Shown in pieces: positions 15,352 to 59,035 of a stretch of 64,000 nt of DNA (the stretch's first letter is position 1; every line of letters begins with the position of its first letter). The stretch lies in the NCBI GenBank assembly GCA_021234155.1, contig JAJEKV010000052.1, positions 62,001-126,000 on the forward strand. The letters run 5' to 3'. Made by a program: the position numbers and the translations under genes. Source of the DNA: Isoetes taiwanensis (lineage: Eukaryota; Streptophyta; Lycopodiopsida; Isoetales; Isoetaceae). The notes beneath the pieces were generated by a model. It did not search any database, was not told where the DNA came from, and saw only the letters and a program-made list of their open reading frames with translations.

Positions 15352-15434
15352 TCTCTCTCTCTCTCTCTCTCTCTCTCTCTCTCTCTCTCTCTCTCTCTCT
15401 CTCTCTCTCTCTCTCTCTCTCTCTCTCTCTCTCT
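15352..15434. repeat. (CT)n microsatellite, 5' side of LINE A
   Basis: 83 bp of uninterrupted CT dinucleotides between a host repeat unit and the LINE 5' end. Confidence 0.97.
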
Positions 15435-15556
15435 GGTTCTCTCTCCGGGTTTTATCTGGTTTCCAAAGGCTAAGCGTGAATCTTTGCTCGGTGGGGCCGC
15501 TACTTGGTGGGGCTGCTTTGTGATGCAAGTACTGGGGCTTTGGAGAGGCGTAAAGG

Positions 15557-16548
15557 ATGGCACGGAGGAAACGGACTGCCGATAATGCTGGAAGAAAACA
15601 AAAAGAAGGAAATATTGTAAGAGATGATGGTGGGTCGTCTTCATCAGACTCGATACCGCACTGTGTTACGGAGCGGGGGAAACGGTAGAAAAAATAGGGG
15701 TCAGGGCAAAACAGGAGGGCTTATCATCGCCGGCCTTCCAAAATCGAGGGCTCCTCCGTCACAAAGGCTTCAAAGCGGGGATTCTTTACATCGTGCCGGT
15801 CTTTGGACAAAGCAAAGGGGTCCGGGTTTTGATGTTACGCCACCAGAGGCACTGACCAAGCAGGATCTGCTGCAAGCCATCGGCCAGATGCGACAGGCAA
15901 TGGATCACTCCCTGGTGTCTATGAAAATGTCGATGGAGATCTCGGTACAAGGTATGGTCAACGAGCTCAAATCCTTTCTGTTATCTCATGTGCAGAATGA
16001 AATAGATAGATGCAAGGAGGCCATGAAGGCTGAATTGGAAAGCTTCCAGGAAAGTATGAAAATTGAAATGGAAACATTCAAACAATCAGTGGCTAGACAG
16101 AGTAATGAGACTAACGGATCAGCAGGTATGTTAGAAGCTAATGATGATATCCTGGAGGTAAGAGCTCAGCTTTCTGCATATATTGAAGAGCAAGAAAAGA
16201 AGGAAAAAAGCATTAAATGTAAGAATTATAGGCATGCCCGAAGAAACAGGGGAACAAACCAAGGATCTGGTTGTGGCTCTGTGTGAACAAGAACTTCAGA
16301 TTATGGACGCAGGAGTAACTGAGGCTTTTCGTATCGGAAAACCAAATAGTGGCAACTGGCACATTATAGTTCGTTTCAGGTCCAGGGAAGATAAGTTCAA
16401 TGTGTTGAAAAAGAAAATGATGTTGAAAAGGAAACGAAATGTCTGGATAAACGATGACCTCACTAAAAACCAGCTGCAAGAATACAAAGCACAACTTCGG
16501 ATCTTCAAGGAGGCAAGACGTAATGGCAAAAAGCATTTTTGGCCTTGA
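15557..16548 (+). pseudogene. LINE A ORF1, nucleic-acid-binding protein, frameshifted
   Basis: An ATG at 15557 opens a basic start (MARRKRTADNAGRKQK) that stops after about 43 codons. The frame from 15624 continues to 16286, and a third from 16183 to 16548, so at least two frameshifts are needed. The middle part (about 15850-16170) is rich in Met/Glu/Lys heptads and looks like a coiled coil. The last part has NVRIIGMPEE, then AFRIGKP, IIVRFRSREDK and DDLTKNQLQEYK, matching the RRM-like plus C-terminal layout of L1-type ORF1 proteins. Such proteins trimerise, bind element RNA and act as chaperones. The stop lies 53 bp before ORF2. Confidence 0.8.
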
Positions 16549-16601
16549 GGGGAAAAGTCATGGTAGAAGAAGATGCATAGGAATTAGGGACCATCAGGGT
16601 T

Positions 16602-18890
16602 ATGTGCTGGAACATAAACAGTTTGAACTCAACTAAAGTAGCAACTATGAGTGATATTGTCGAACAAGTAGATGTCTTCTTTCTGTTAGAAACTTGTGAA
16701 AATGAGGAAAAAGGGTTATTAGATATTCGTGTTTTATATGTCTTCACTCAAGATGGCATCATAAACTTTGGAGGCTTAAAGGATTCGGGCGGGATTGCTT
16801 GTTACATAAAACATGAGCTGCGAGGGATGATACGATTAGTACATGGCATAAAATCTTACAAAGATATATGGATTGAGATATTGGGACCTTTAAATAAAAC
16901 TTACATAGCAGGGTGTTACTACCCGCCACGTGAATCGCCAGTTTATAACTGGGGGCAGATAGATAGGGATGATCCCTTTTTTGACTTAGAACAGGATGTT
17001 CTAAAGTTTATGCAGCAGGGAGAAGTGATCTTAATGGGCGACTTCAATGGCAGGATAGCACAGAAGCAGGCAGCAATGACTAGCATTGAAGGAGATCCTT
17101 TGTGGATGGAGATGAATGACGGAAGTGAGATGAAGGAACTAGGGTGGCATAGAGAGTCAGCAGATAGAGTTAGATGGCCCACACCACAAGGAAATCATGT
17201 ACTAAATATGTGCACAGGACTCGATATGATCATTTATAATGGCCTTCAAAAATACAAGAACTCTGGCAAGCCCACTTGCAGAGGCACTAGCGTGGTAGAC
17301 TTAGTAATAGCTAGCCCGGGGCTAATGAGAACTATTTCAGATGTTGACGTTGGTGAAGAGAGGACGGAATCAGATCATGTGCCTATCTTTGTCACCATGC
17401 TTATTAAACGCCAAGAGATTGCAAGAAAGGTAGTGGACAACCATAATAAAAAGATATACATGCGGTATAACAGAGTGGATGAGTACAACTCTTTATGTGA
17501 ATCCTGTGCCATGTGCAAGGATTGGCCCGAAAAGGTGGAAGAGCTTACTGTGAGCCTTAGTGAATTGGTAATAGAGGCAGCAAAGAAGTGTTTTGTCTCC
17601 CAACGTAGGCTAAAAGGGCTCCCGTGCAACAGCTGGTTTGATGTAGAATGCAAAGCAAAACGACAGAAATTTAAGCATGCAAGGGGGGAGGAGAAAATCA
17701 TGGCTAAGAGGGAATATATGCGACTAGTGAAAGCGAAAAAGAAAAAGTTTCTATACCAAAAACATATGCGACTGATTGGAGACCTGCTGGTAGAGCCTAA
17801 AAATTTTTGGTCAAGGCTTAAGCCAAAAATGGAACAGGGTGAGTTGCTTGAGGTGGAGCCATTAATTAGCCAAGTTAATAAAATATACAATGTGCCAGGC
17901 GTAAAAGACACTGTCCTAGCAGATCTCAATGTAGAATGGGAATTCACAATGGAAGATATACAGGGGGGGCTAGAAACATTGGCAAATGGGAAAGCTGCAG
18001 ATAACTTGGGGCTGGTTGCGGAAATGTTTAAGTGGGCAGGAGAGGAGATACACAAAACATTGCTGAAATTAATGAATATGGTATTGAGAGAAGGCTTCCC
18101 ACGGGAATGGCAAATGAACAGGGTTGTTCCCTTACATAAAGCGGGGGATAAGTCAGATCCCAGCAATTATAGGATGATCATGATCAGCAGCCTATATGCT
18201 AAGCTTTTTGCTACTATGGTTAATAGTAAACTAAGCGGGTGGGCAGAGGACATGGGTGTACGGGCTGTGGGACAAGCGGGTTTTAGACCCAAACGGTCCA
18301 CTATAGATCACTTGGTTACCTTGAGAGCGATGATGGATACAGTTACAGGAACAAGGAAACCACTTTATATGCTATTTGTAGATTTTACAAAAGCTTTCGA
18401 CATGGTGGACAGAGACAATTTATGGGAACGTATGGAAAAATTGGGAGTGCCAAACGAGCTAAAGCAAGCAGTCAAAATACTATACGAGAAGGTACTTGTG
18501 CAGTTATCATTTCCTTATTTTAGAGAAGGCCAGGAACCAGTAGTCAGCAACATAGGTGTAAAGCAAGGGTGTCCCATGTCTCCCACTCTTTTTGGGCTGT
18601 TCATAGACCAACTAGAAGACTGGATAATGCAGAATGGAGGAGATGGTATGGCTCTAGAGAGGTTTGTGGTGTTCTTACTTCTATATGCGGATGACGTAGT
18701 ACTTTTGTCAAGGTCAATTACTGGGATACAGAAACATTTAGATGGATTAGCTGAATTTTGTGACCGCAAAAGTATGAAAGTGAACATGGGAAAGACTAAA
18801 ATAATTGTATTTGGGGCAAACAAAGTGGATCACATACATCTTGTTTACAAAGGGGAACCCACGAACCGGTGGATTCATATAAATATCTAG
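16602..18890 (+). CDS. LINE A ORF2: AP endonuclease - reverse transcriptase (762 aa open)
   Basis: This is the element's replication enzyme; it nicks the target and copies element RNA at the nick. Endonuclease landmarks are WNIN at residues 3-6, LLETCENEE near 29-37, GDFNGR at 146-151 and SDHVP near 256-260. The RT block follows, with ANGKAAD, RVVPLHKAGDKSD, AGFRPKRSTIDHL, DFTKAFDMVD near residue 597, GVKQGCPMSPTLFGLFID, and catalytic YADD at 695-698. The reading frame ends early at a stop just after the RT thumb; homologous sequence continues in other frames to 19900. The start is the first ATG of the open frame and gives the expected endonuclease N-terminus. Intact copies would be about 1080 aa. 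Confidence 0.9.
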   Translation: MCWNINSLNSTKVATMSDIVEQVDVFFLLETCENEEKGLLDIRVLYVFTQDGIINFGGLKDSGGIACYIKHELRGMIRLVHGIKSYKDIWIEILGPLNKTYIAGCYYPPRESPVYNWGQIDRDDPFFDLEQDVLKFMQQGEVILMGDFNGRIAQKQAAMTSIEGDPLWMEMNDGSEMKELGWHRESADRVRWPTPQGNHVLNMCTGLDMIIYNGLQKYKNSGKPTCRGTSVVDLVIASPGLMRTISDVDVGEERTESDHVPIFVTMLIKRQEIARKVVDNHNKKIYMRYNRVDEYNSLCESCAMCKDWPEKVEELTVSLSELVIEAAKKCFVSQRRLKGLPCNSWFDVECKAKRQKFKHARGEEKIMAKREYMRLVKAKKKKFLYQKHMRLIGDLLVEPKNFWSRLKPKMEQGELLEVEPLISQVNKIYNVPGVKDTVLADLNVEWEFTMEDIQGGLETLANGKAADNLGLVAEMFKWAGEEIHKTLLKLMNMVLREGFPREWQMNRVVPLHKAGDKSDPSNYRMIMISSLYAKLFATMVNSKLSGWAEDMGVRAVGQAGFRPKRSTIDHLVTLRAMMDTVTGTRKPLYMLFVDFTKAFDMVDRDNLWERMEKLGVPNELKQAVKILYEKVLVQLSFPYFREGQEPVVSNIGVKQGCPMSPTLFGLFIDQLEDWIMQNGGDGMALERFVVFLLLYADDVVLLSRSITGIQKHLDGLAEFCDRKSMKVNMGKTKIIVFGANKVDHIHLVYKGEPTNRWIHINI

Positions 18891-58368: not shown

Positions 58369-58486
58369 TGTATTTTTACGAGAGCACAAGAGCATCCTCT
58401 AGGATAGCTCCCTCTTCAGGAGCACCACCCCCACAAGGATACCAGGGGCCAAAAGGTCCTAGGATGCCAAGATCCTAGTGAGGTTC
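58369..58486 (-). mobile_element. Short fragment in the GA tract, possibly a LINE 3' end
   Basis: 118 bp with GA repeats on both sides. Read on the minus strand it contains GGAGCTATCCTAGAGGATGC, faintly like the EDALED end of LINE ORF2. The CATTTC terminus is missing, so the assignment is weak. Confidence 0.4.
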
Positions 58487-58648
58487 GAGAAGAGAGAGAG
58501 AGAGAGAGAGAGAGAGAGAGAGAGAGAGAGAGAGAGAGAGAGAGAGAGAGAGAGAGAGAGAGAGAGAGAGAGAGAGAGAGAGAGAGAGAGAGAGAGAGAG
58601 AAGAAGAAAGAAGAAGAAGAAGAAGAAGAAGAAGAAGAAGAAGAAGAA
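58487..58648. repeat. (GA)n followed by (GAA)n microsatellite
   Basis: GA repeats to about 58600, then GAA repeats to 58648, next to the LINE H fragment. Confidence 0.96.
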
Positions 58649-58821
58649 AAATTTTTTAACGCCCTTGGAGACCACATTGATCTATGGGACACTCACCCAA
58701 TTGGGCCCTTCCCCCAACCACTTTACATCAATTGTAGTCAGTTTACATCTACCAATGGTACAAAGTGTCCTCTTATCACCCCATAAGGTTCAACACTTCA
58801 AGTCGACCATCCAACAGTGAC
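58649..58821 (-). mobile_element. LINE H: very short 3' LINE fragment (173 bp)
   Basis: TTTTTTAACGCCCTTGGAGA then CCACATTGATCTATGGGACA resembles the LINE G 3' end (TTCGCCCTTGAGACCATGTCGATGGGACG). Microsatellites lie on both sides. Probably a strongly 5'-truncated insertion. Confidence 0.65.
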
Positions 58822-59035
58822 GAGAGAGAGAGAGAGAGAGAGAGAGAGAGAGAGAGAGAGAGAGAGAGAGAGAGAGAGAGAGAGAGAGAGAGAGAGAGAG
58901 AGAGAGAGAGAGAGAGAGAGAGAGAGAGAGAGAGAGAGAGAGAGAGAGGAGAGAGAGAGAGAGAGAGAGAGAGAGAGAGAGAGAGAGAGAGAGAGAGAGA
59001 GAGAGAGAGAGAGAGAGAGAGAGAGAGAGAGAGAG
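58822..59035. repeat. (GA)n microsatellite, 214 bp
   Basis: GA repeats with one interruption (GGAGAG) near 58948, followed by TCTTCATTTAGTTATGG. Confidence 0.97.

What the first reader, a model, noticed from the sequence alone, without database searches (positions are those of the whole stretch)
15352..59035. A plant LINE family that appears to insert only into (TC)n/(GA)n microsatellites, in one orientation
Seen: LINEs A, C, D, EF, G and fragment H are each bounded on both sides by (TC)n when read in the LINE sense. This holds for full-length copies (A 4540 bp, D 4533 bp, EF 4347 bp after removing insertions) and for 5'-truncated ones (C, G, H). LINE A is on the plus strand with CT tracts, the others on the minus strand with GA tracts, so orientation relative to the repeat is constant. 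Established: some animal non-LTR elements target microsatellites; most characterised plant LINEs end in poly(A) with little target specificity. Inference: the (UC)n end of the RNA primes on a nicked (GA)n strand.
Basis: partly seen in the sequence, partly recalled or inferred. Interest (0 to 1): 0.88.

Follow-up and report, generated by a model that had tools for sequence, protein, structure and literature searches.

The report
Quillwort LINE/SINE pair targeting (TC)n microsatellites
In a plant genome that matches the quillwort Isoetes taiwanensis, a family of jumping elements (LINEs), and apparently a short partner element that shares part of its tail, land preferentially and in one fixed direction inside TCTCTC... 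repeats, a habit for which I found no land-plant precedent in the papers I could search.

Summary
Confirmed and extended; "only" is too strong. The assembly's size matches Isoetes taiwanensis. LINEs A, C, D, EF, G and fragment H are each bounded by (TC)n in LINE sense; all but A form one same-orientation stack. Genome-wide, the family's 3' hairpin occurs 251 times on the forward strand; 155 are followed within 20-50 nt by (CT)6 (about 0.05 expected, my arithmetic), 0 by (GA)6. Of 20 close relatives read in full, 16 have (CT)4 or more at the 3' junction, 13 upstream, 19 on at least one side, 10 on both. Of 40 3' ends taken without regard to CT, 21 have it, 3 have three repeats, 16 lack it. Empty copies of a host repeat carry (CT)n where LINE A, and elsewhere a SINE, sit. 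New here: a covarying 3' hairpin with an (ATTTC)n tail, and a tRNA-like SINE that shares a 3' end with one LINE type and ends in (CT)n in 12 of 12 loci. Best reading: an APE-type LINE doing target-primed reverse transcription on nicked (GA)n, its machinery probably shared by the SINE. Microsatellite-targeting LINEs are known elsewhere; my paper searches gave no land-plant case. The clade could not be fixed.

The parts
15435..19974 (+). LINE A, full length; EN-RT reading frame 16602-18890, ORF1 pieces 15624-16286 and about 16183-16542
15352..15434 (+). (CT)n tract upstream of LINE A, inside host repeat X1 (left part GGGTCGGGCCTAGT just before)
19975..20106 (+). (CT)n tract downstream of LINE A; X1 right part (CGGCGTAGCTATGGGC) follows
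20187..20345 (+). second X1 copy without an insertion (short degenerate CT tract): an empty-site comparison beside LINE A
24439..24517 (-). (TC)n after LINE C, followed by (GT)n
24518..25188 (-). LINE C, 5'-truncated copy with 3' hairpin and ATTTC tail
25189..25387 (-). (TC)n between D and C (199 bp)
25388..34923 (-). LINE D, interrupted by insertions (about 32756-31532 and 30110-26349)
34924..34939 (-). short (TC)8 between EF and D
34940..35111 (-). 3' part of LINE EF (hairpin, ATTTC tail)
52341..56508 (-). 5' part of LINE EF (EN, RT); separated from its 3' part by a ~17.2-kb insertion
56509..56679 (-). (TC)n between G and EF
56680..58266 (-). LINE G, 5'-truncated inside RT
58267..58368 (-). 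(TC)n between SINE fragment and G
58369..58486 (-). 5'-truncated SINE fragment (118 bp) with (TC)n on both sides; 86.6% identical to the SINE in L038
58487..58601 (-). (TC)n between H's (TTC)n tail and the SINE fragment
58649..58821 (-). LINE H: last ~170 bp of a LINE 3' end (hairpin, then (TTC)n 58648-58599)
58822..59035 (-). (TC)n upstream of H (214 bp)
62852..64000 (-). duplicate of the left flank (93%) and of the first ~150 bp of G (97%), with a single (TC)n tract 63003-63166 and no H or SINE: natural comparison for the filled site 58267-59035; cut by the window end

Best explanation
This is an APE-endonuclease non-LTR retrotransposon family (LINE) of Isoetes whose preferred target is the (TC)n/(GA)n microsatellite, together with a tRNA-like SINE that apparently rides on it. 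Proposed steps: (1) ORF2 protein recognises the conserved two-part hairpin at the RNA 3' end (inferred from covariation); (2) its APE domain nicks the (GA)n strand of a microsatellite (inferred); (3) the (GA)n 3'-OH is primed on the pyrimidine-rich (AUUUC)n/(UC)n tail of the RNA, fixing orientation so that the coding strand carries TC (orientation and junctions shown, priming inferred); (4) second-strand joining, often after incomplete copying, leaves (TC)n upstream of many full-length and 5'-truncated copies (shown). Because an insertion can leave (TC)n on both sides, a tract stays a landing site and insertions stack in one orientation (stack shown; serial insertion inferred). The SINE ends in (CT)n and shares a 3'-end sequence with one LINE subfamily (shown); its use of the LINE enzyme is inferred.
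For: Whole-genome counts: hairpin core 251 forward + 251 reverse, 0 in the backward control; 155 forward starts followed by (CT)6 at 20-50 nt; 0 by (GA)6; chance about 0.05 (from, my arithmetic). Twenty close copies (ranks 2-21): (CT)4 or more at the 3' junction in 16 of 20; upstream in 13 of 20 (0-33 nt from the alignable start in six 5'-truncated copies; 65-431 nt in seven longer ones whose 5' regions do not align to A); on at least one side in 19, on both in 10. Empty sites: X1 uninterrupted around (CT)4-11 in 11 of 20 fetched places; filled by LINE A in the window and by the SINE in L090. Duplicate pair with and without H and SINE in one tract. Hairpin: 93.5% of cells paired; 10 cells with both-side changes against 4.1 shuffled, 0 of 500; covariation score reached by 3 of 500. 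SINE: 12 of 12 loci with (CT)4 or more at the 3' end; 88 matches of the exact 3' end plus (CT)4 against 107 of the 3' end alone, whose backward control gives 22; tail shared with one LINE type (score 29, 0 of 5000 mononucleotide shuffles). EN PF03372 and RT PF00078.
Against: 16 of 40 unselected 3' ends carry fewer than three CT repeats at the junction (several share flanks). L026, with both ORFs open, has no CT run at either end. Five of 20 copies lack upstream CT (two are arms of one inverted pair), one has three repeats, one runs off the fetched stretch. In seven longer copies the true 5' end was not fixed; A's own first 400 bp find only 6 places in the genome. SINE upstream CT of four repeats or more is in 6 of 12 loci, three repeats in 2, none in 4, so (CT)n at the SINE 3' end might partly be its own tail. 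Target duplications cannot be seen inside (TC)n. The shared tail was found with one of four LINE types tried; the other three do not exceed shuffles. Hairpin: pairs with both-side change reached by 53 of 500 shuffles, further pair types by 181 of 500, and the structure slid by +2 columns keeps 9 such cells and a score of 0.179 against 0.224.
Confidence: 0.85

Rival explanations
1. (TC)n is part of the element: a (UC)n tail at the RNA 3' end (as poly(A) elsewhere) and a (TC)n stretch in the 5' UTR, with no target preference.
For: (CT)n directly follows 12 of 12 SINE 3' ends although 4 of 12 have no upstream CT; the LINE tail ATTTC runs smoothly into CT.
Against: 5'-truncated copies also start 0-1 nt after long (CT)n (L030, L034, L039, L041; C and G in the window); X1 carries (CT)n at the same place when empty; the duplicate pair shows a tract without H and SINE; 16 of 40 LINE 3' ends lack CT, which an obligatory tail would not predict.
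Confidence: 0.08
2. The stacks arose by unequal recombination or slippage between (TC)n tracts that spread LINE-(TC)n units, not by targeted insertion.
For: Same-orientation neighbours (window; L034, L036, L041); some flanks recur (L046/L068, L049/L050, L072/L073).
Against: Members of a stack differ in subfamily and truncation point, and 155 forward-strand 3' ends on many contigs are followed by (CT)6 (first 100 rows seen).
Confidence: 0.04
3. A host protein that binds GA repeats (plant GAGA-binding BBR/BPC proteins, recalled) tethers the insertion complex; the endonuclease itself is unspecific.
For: Would explain preference with leakage to other sites.
Against: Junctions lie at the tract and orientation is fixed, which suggests base pairing or strand-specific nicking at the repeat itself; nothing here tests it directly.
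Confidence: 0.1

Closest known systems
Kibi and Koshi and relatives (Tx1-clade LINEs of fish, said to target (TC)n and (TTC)n; names, clade and targets recalled; Kojima and Fujiwara 2004 seen only as a reference title)
   Same: LINE with APE endonuclease and a (TC)n target
   Different: Land-plant host; covarying 3' hairpin with (ATTTC)n tail; tRNA-like SINE partner. RT phylogeny could not be tested, and I did not see the Kibi sequence.
Stringent-type plant L1 lineage of maize and sorghum with 3' hairpin and ZmSINE2/3 (PMC3747384, passages seen)
   Same: Conserved 3' hairpin with compensatory changes; SINE sharing a LINE 3' end; land plant
   Different: Almost all flowering-plant L1 end in poly(A) per the passage and no microsatellite target is mentioned in the passages seen; here the tail is (ATTTC)n and the preferred target (TC)n
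UnaL2, L2 clade (PMC3747384, passage seen)
   Same: Pentanucleotide tail repeats ((TGTAA)n there, (ATTTC)n here); stringent 3' recognition and SINE partner (partly recalled)
   Different: No microsatellite target mentioned in the passages seen; different clade and host
Microsatellite-targeting LINEs with restriction-like endonuclease (some HERO families; PMC4640811, passages seen)
   Same: Microsatellite targeting
   Different: HERO carries a restriction-like endonuclease; here it is APE-type (PF03372)

Membership tests
Non-LTR retrotransposon (LINE) with APE endonuclease | APE-like endonuclease domain upstream of RT in one ORF | tested here: met
   PF03372 and PF00078 in A and L026 ORF2; in EF on two overlapping frames; EN profile hits exonuclease III and AP endonucleases in PDB, best E 1.1e-05
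Tx1 clade (Kibi-like) | RT groups with Tx1-clade sequences | not testable with these tools
   no reference LINE set on hand; PDB hits are L1 ORF2p and R2 with similar scores
Tx1 clade (Kibi-like) | target (TC)n microsatellite (recalled for Kibi) | tested here: met
   preference, not exclusivity
Plant L1 clade, usual form | 3' poly(A) tail | tested here: not met
   2-5 ATTTC units at the 3' end of 20 of 20 loci, no poly(A)
Plant L1 clade, usual form | RNase H domain (often present) | tested here: not met
   no RNase H family at E up to 1 in the 1099-aa ORF2 of L026
RTE clade | (TTG)n-type tail and a single ORF | tested here: not met
   ATTTC tail, 346-aa ORF1
R2/RLE group | restriction-like endonuclease, no APE | tested here: not met
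   APE domain N-terminal to RT; no separate search for RLE motifs
Stringent-type LINE with SINE partner | conserved 3' hairpin with covariation | tested here: met
   moderate strength, slid control +2 also scores
Stringent-type LINE with SINE partner | SINE sharing the LINE 3' end | tested here: met
   one of four LINE 3' types aligns beyond 5000 shuffles
Stringent-type LINE with SINE partner | 3' end required for retrotransposition | not testable with these tools
   needs an assay
tRNA-derived SINE | internal pol III promoter boxes from a tRNA | tested here: inconclusive
   GTTCGAACC box by eye (motif recalled); ARAGORN finds no tRNA in three loci, Rfam only a sub-threshold snoZ178 match in two

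The most novel reading that the evidence does not exclude
The first site-selective LINE/SINE pair of a land plant: a lycophyte LINE lineage that kept stringent 3' hairpin recognition, uses a pyrimidine-rich tail instead of poly(A), and lives in (TC)n microsatellites, which insertions can leave on both sides so that one tract receives insertion after insertion; the SINE has adopted both the LINE tail and its target.
Probability: 0.6. Interest if true: 0.75.

Novelty: new variant of a known kind. Interest (0 to 1): 0.63.

Why it matters
Target-specific LINEs are reported mostly from RLE-bearing early branches and the Tx1 and R1 clades (PMC4640811, passages), in my recollection nearly all of animals; plant LINEs are described as L1 with (A)n or RTE with (GTT)n or (TTG)n ends (PMC3747384, PMC9033089, passages). 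A lycophyte LINE/SINE pair with a structured 3' end and a simple-repeat target bears on the open question, put in PMC3747384, whether ancestral plant LINEs recognised their RNA stringently. It also gives a natural system (hundreds of 3' ends, empty sites, a SINE whose 40 scored copies are 97-100% identical) to test how target-primed reverse transcription chooses strand and site.

Tried and rejected
Phylogenetic placement of ORF2: no reference LINE set; PDB search puts the RT near both L1 ORF2p and R2, so no clade is claimed. ORF1: AlphaFold model weak (mean pLDDT 55), Foldseek gives 0 matches at E<=0.001, profile search nothing better than E 0.05, Pfam nothing above cut-off; an L1-like coiled coil plus RNA-binding part is only a resemblance. 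Relatives in viral contigs: 66 pattern matches, none confirmed. tRNA or Rfam support for the SINE head: none. Host repeat X2 (..CATGTGGCC..(CT)n..GGCCACATG..) as a further target reservoir: motif near a CT run in 7 of 20, 4 of 40 and 3 of 12 loci, but whole loci were scanned, so this is only a lead. An earlier count said '13/16 determinable; truncated 6/6' for LINE upstream CT and '8/12' for the SINE (the latter counts three-repeat runs), and calls X1 copies L095-L100 empty although only their left halves were read; the counts here replace it. One search recounted them; with an 85-nt limit it gives 22, 2 and 16 of 40 because L044 has (CT)7 further out, while at the junction L044 has three repeats. 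Literature: ten searches, one for the genome paper and nine on the subject, gave no land-plant LINE with a microsatellite target in their listings (the broad ones show only the top rows); most subscription papers are not held. PMC8566536, PMC4640811, PMC3706591, PMC3747384 and PMC9033089 were seen as passages; Kojima and Fujiwara 2004 and Craig et al. 2021 only as reference titles.
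Full report
Where it is. The window is C1059:62001-126000 of a 1,658,258,908-base assembly in 1110 contigs. The published Isoetes taiwanensis assembly is 1658.30 Mb in 204 scaffolds plus 909 unscaffolded contigs (PMC8566536, passages).

The observation. LINE A (15435-19974, +) sits between (CT)n 15352-15434 and 19975-20106. On the minus strand the LINE-sense order is (TC)n, H, (TTC)n/(TC)n, SINE fragment, (TC)n, G, (TC)n, EF, (TC)8, D, (TC)n, C, (TC)n and then (GT)n. 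EF is split by a ~17.2-kb insertion: similarity to ORF2 ends at about 52340, and a stretch resembling the ORF2 end, with the hairpin and tail, lies at 35111-34940. All members of the stack point the same way.

Genome-wide test. I chose the hairpin core CATAGRCCTGGTGGTCT, which says nothing about flanks: 251 forward and 251 reverse matches, 0 in the backward control. With (CT)6 allowed 20-50 nt downstream there are 155 forward starts (the reverse figure, 1069, counts several ends per copy and is not used). With (GA)6 there are none on either strand. The genome holds 5299 + 5273 tract starts of the form V(CT)6. Taking up to 11,442 CT-sense tracts on one strand (5299 plus the 6143 of the backward pattern, an estimate that still misses tracts beginning and ending in T), a 31-nt window meets the start of one with probability about 0.0002, so about 0.05 of 251 copies would by chance (my arithmetic).

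Copies read in full. (CT)4 or more lies at the 3' junction in 16 of 20; L032 and L038 have three repeats, L027 two, L026 none. Upstream, (CT)4 or more lies in 13 of 20: 0-33 nt before the alignable start in six 5'-truncated copies (L030, L034, L035, L038, L039, L041), and 65-431 nt before it in seven longer ones (L025, L027-L029, L031-L033), whose 5' regions do not align to A, so that the exact 5' end is taken to be the tract edge. L036 has three repeats, L042 runs off the stretch, L023, L024, L026, L037 and L040 have no run of four. At least one side: 19 of 20; both sides: 10 of 20. L030, L034, L039 and L041 begin 0-1 nt after the tract, so there the upstream tract cannot be a 5' UTR. A's own first 400 bp find only 6 places: 5' regions vary in the family.

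3' ends taken without regard to CT. The first 40 places of the listing, in contig order and mostly on small contigs, were fetched. 21 of 40 have (CT)4 or more at the end of the ATTTC-type tail, 3 have three repeats (L044, L045, L078) and 16 have fewer. Among the 16, L046/L068, L049/L050 (and probably L048) and L072/L073 share flanks, and L043 is the L026 locus. Strong preference, then, not exclusivity; decay of old tracts and true off-target insertion cannot be told apart here.

Empty and filled sites. For a host repeat (X1, GGGTCGGGCCTAGTCTATCTTA(CT)nCGGCGTAGCTATGGGC) one search scored 40 of 110 candidates. Of 20 small places fetched, 11 are uninterrupted with (CT)4-11 (one, L114, with an altered right edge), 6 show the left half with long CT (45-91 repeats), and 3 show other sequence to the left of the tract: one a SINE (L110), one unidentified (L109), one an X2-like flank with a doubtful X1 right end (L111). 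LINE A in the window and the SINE in L090 lie in the (CT)n of X1 with both X1 halves outside. A second X1 copy without insertion follows LINE A at 20187-20345. Inside the window, 59036-59881 is duplicated at 63167-64000 (93%), and the start of G at 62852-63002 (97%); the second copy has one (TC)n tract where the first has tract, H, tract, SINE fragment, tract.

The 3' end. In LINE sense: GCGTC-ACAT-AGACC-TGGT-GGTCT-GCA-GACGC, an A/T-rich stretch, (ATTTC)n, then (CT)n. Subfamilies change pairs on both sides (GCGTC/GACGC to ACGTC/GACGT; AGACC/GGTCT to AGGCC/GGCCT). In 20 distinct ends, chosen by me for variety, 93.5% of cells pair; 10 cells have both-side changes (mean of shuffles 4.1, 0 of 500 as high), the covariation score is reached by 3 of 500, but the number of pairs with both-side changes (4 of 10) by 53 of 500, further pair types by 181 of 500, and sliding by +2 columns keeps 9 such cells. 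Most ends were found through the core motif, so inner-stem variation is under-sampled.

The SINE. Beside L038's LINE 3' end lies a ~150-bp element with a tRNA B-box-like GTTCGAACC (motif recalled), also present as the 118-bp fragment in the window. Its first-look candidates number 343; the 40 scored are 97-100% identical. In the best 12 loci (one, L086, is the L038 locus), (CT)4 or more follows the 3' end in 12 of 12; upstream it is present in 6, as three repeats in 2, absent in 4. The 3' end ACGTAAAAAATACAT alone matches 107 times (its backward control 22), with (CT)4 added 88 times (backward control 0), so most or nearly all true ends are followed by CT. Its last ~30 nt align with one LINE type (GACGTAAWAAATACA and more; score 29, 0 of 5000 shuffles); three other types do not exceed shuffles (870, 3236 and 4609 of 5000 as high). 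ARAGORN and Rfam give no tRNA, so 'SINE' rests on size, copy number, similarity of copies and the shared tail.

Protein. ORF2 has an APE endonuclease (PF03372) and RT (PF00078), no RNase H found; PDB relatives are L1 ORF2p and R2 RT. One fetched copy keeps both ORFs open, which suggests recent activity. ORF1 (346 aa) has a long helix and a poorly modelled C-terminal part. The clade is left open.

How it works. See Best explanation: (GA)n-strand nick, priming on the pyrimidine-rich tail of a hairpin-selected RNA, (TC)n often left on both sides, hence repeated use of one tract. Shown: junctions, orientation, empty sites, SINE tail; covariation is moderate. Inferred: the nick, the primer, RNA recognition, trans-mobilisation of the SINE.

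Known and new. [quoted passage not shown] plant LINEs as L1 with poly(A) and RTE with (TTG)n or (GTT)n, with three SINE/LINE pairs in flowering plants (PMC3747384, PMC9033089, passages). Nine paper searches on the subject listed no land-plant LINE with a microsatellite target, but many papers are not held. I file this as a new variant of a known kind.

Noticed in passing
window 35112-52340: The ~17.2-kb insertion that splits LINE EF has a Helitron-like 3' end (hairpin GCCCAGCAACGCTGGGC, then CTAGT; signature recalled) and inside it CACTA-like ends (CACTACTACAGAAGAGG.., CACTACTACAAAATAGG....CTAGTAGTG) with GACGTC-rich subterminal repeats; the 215-aa ORF there has no Pfam match.
   Followed up: partly
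L023, L024 (C1028:15.07-15.09 Mb): Nearly the same LINE copy occurs as an inverted pair a few kb apart, with matching flanks at first; recent inverted duplication or assembly feature.
   Followed up: no
L025, L028, L031, L038, L039 left; L023, L024, L056, L061, L076, L078 right: A palindromic host repeat (X2..CATGTGGCC..(CT)n..GGCCACATG..) recurs near CT runs at LINE sites and may be a target reservoir.
   Followed up: partly
L032 both flanks: TCTCTAGCGCCTGCTC stands on both sides of the insertion, possibly a target duplication reaching out of the CT tract.
   Followed up: no
window 22448-23740 and 59400-60440: Long CCCTTTT/TTCCC low-complexity stretches that give long, probably spurious open frames.
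   Followed up: no
L055, L058 and L076 3' ends; H in the window: Tail variants: (ATTCT)n in L055, ATTTA units mixed in, and (TTC)n in H; these variant tails also lie next to (TC)n.
   Followed up: no
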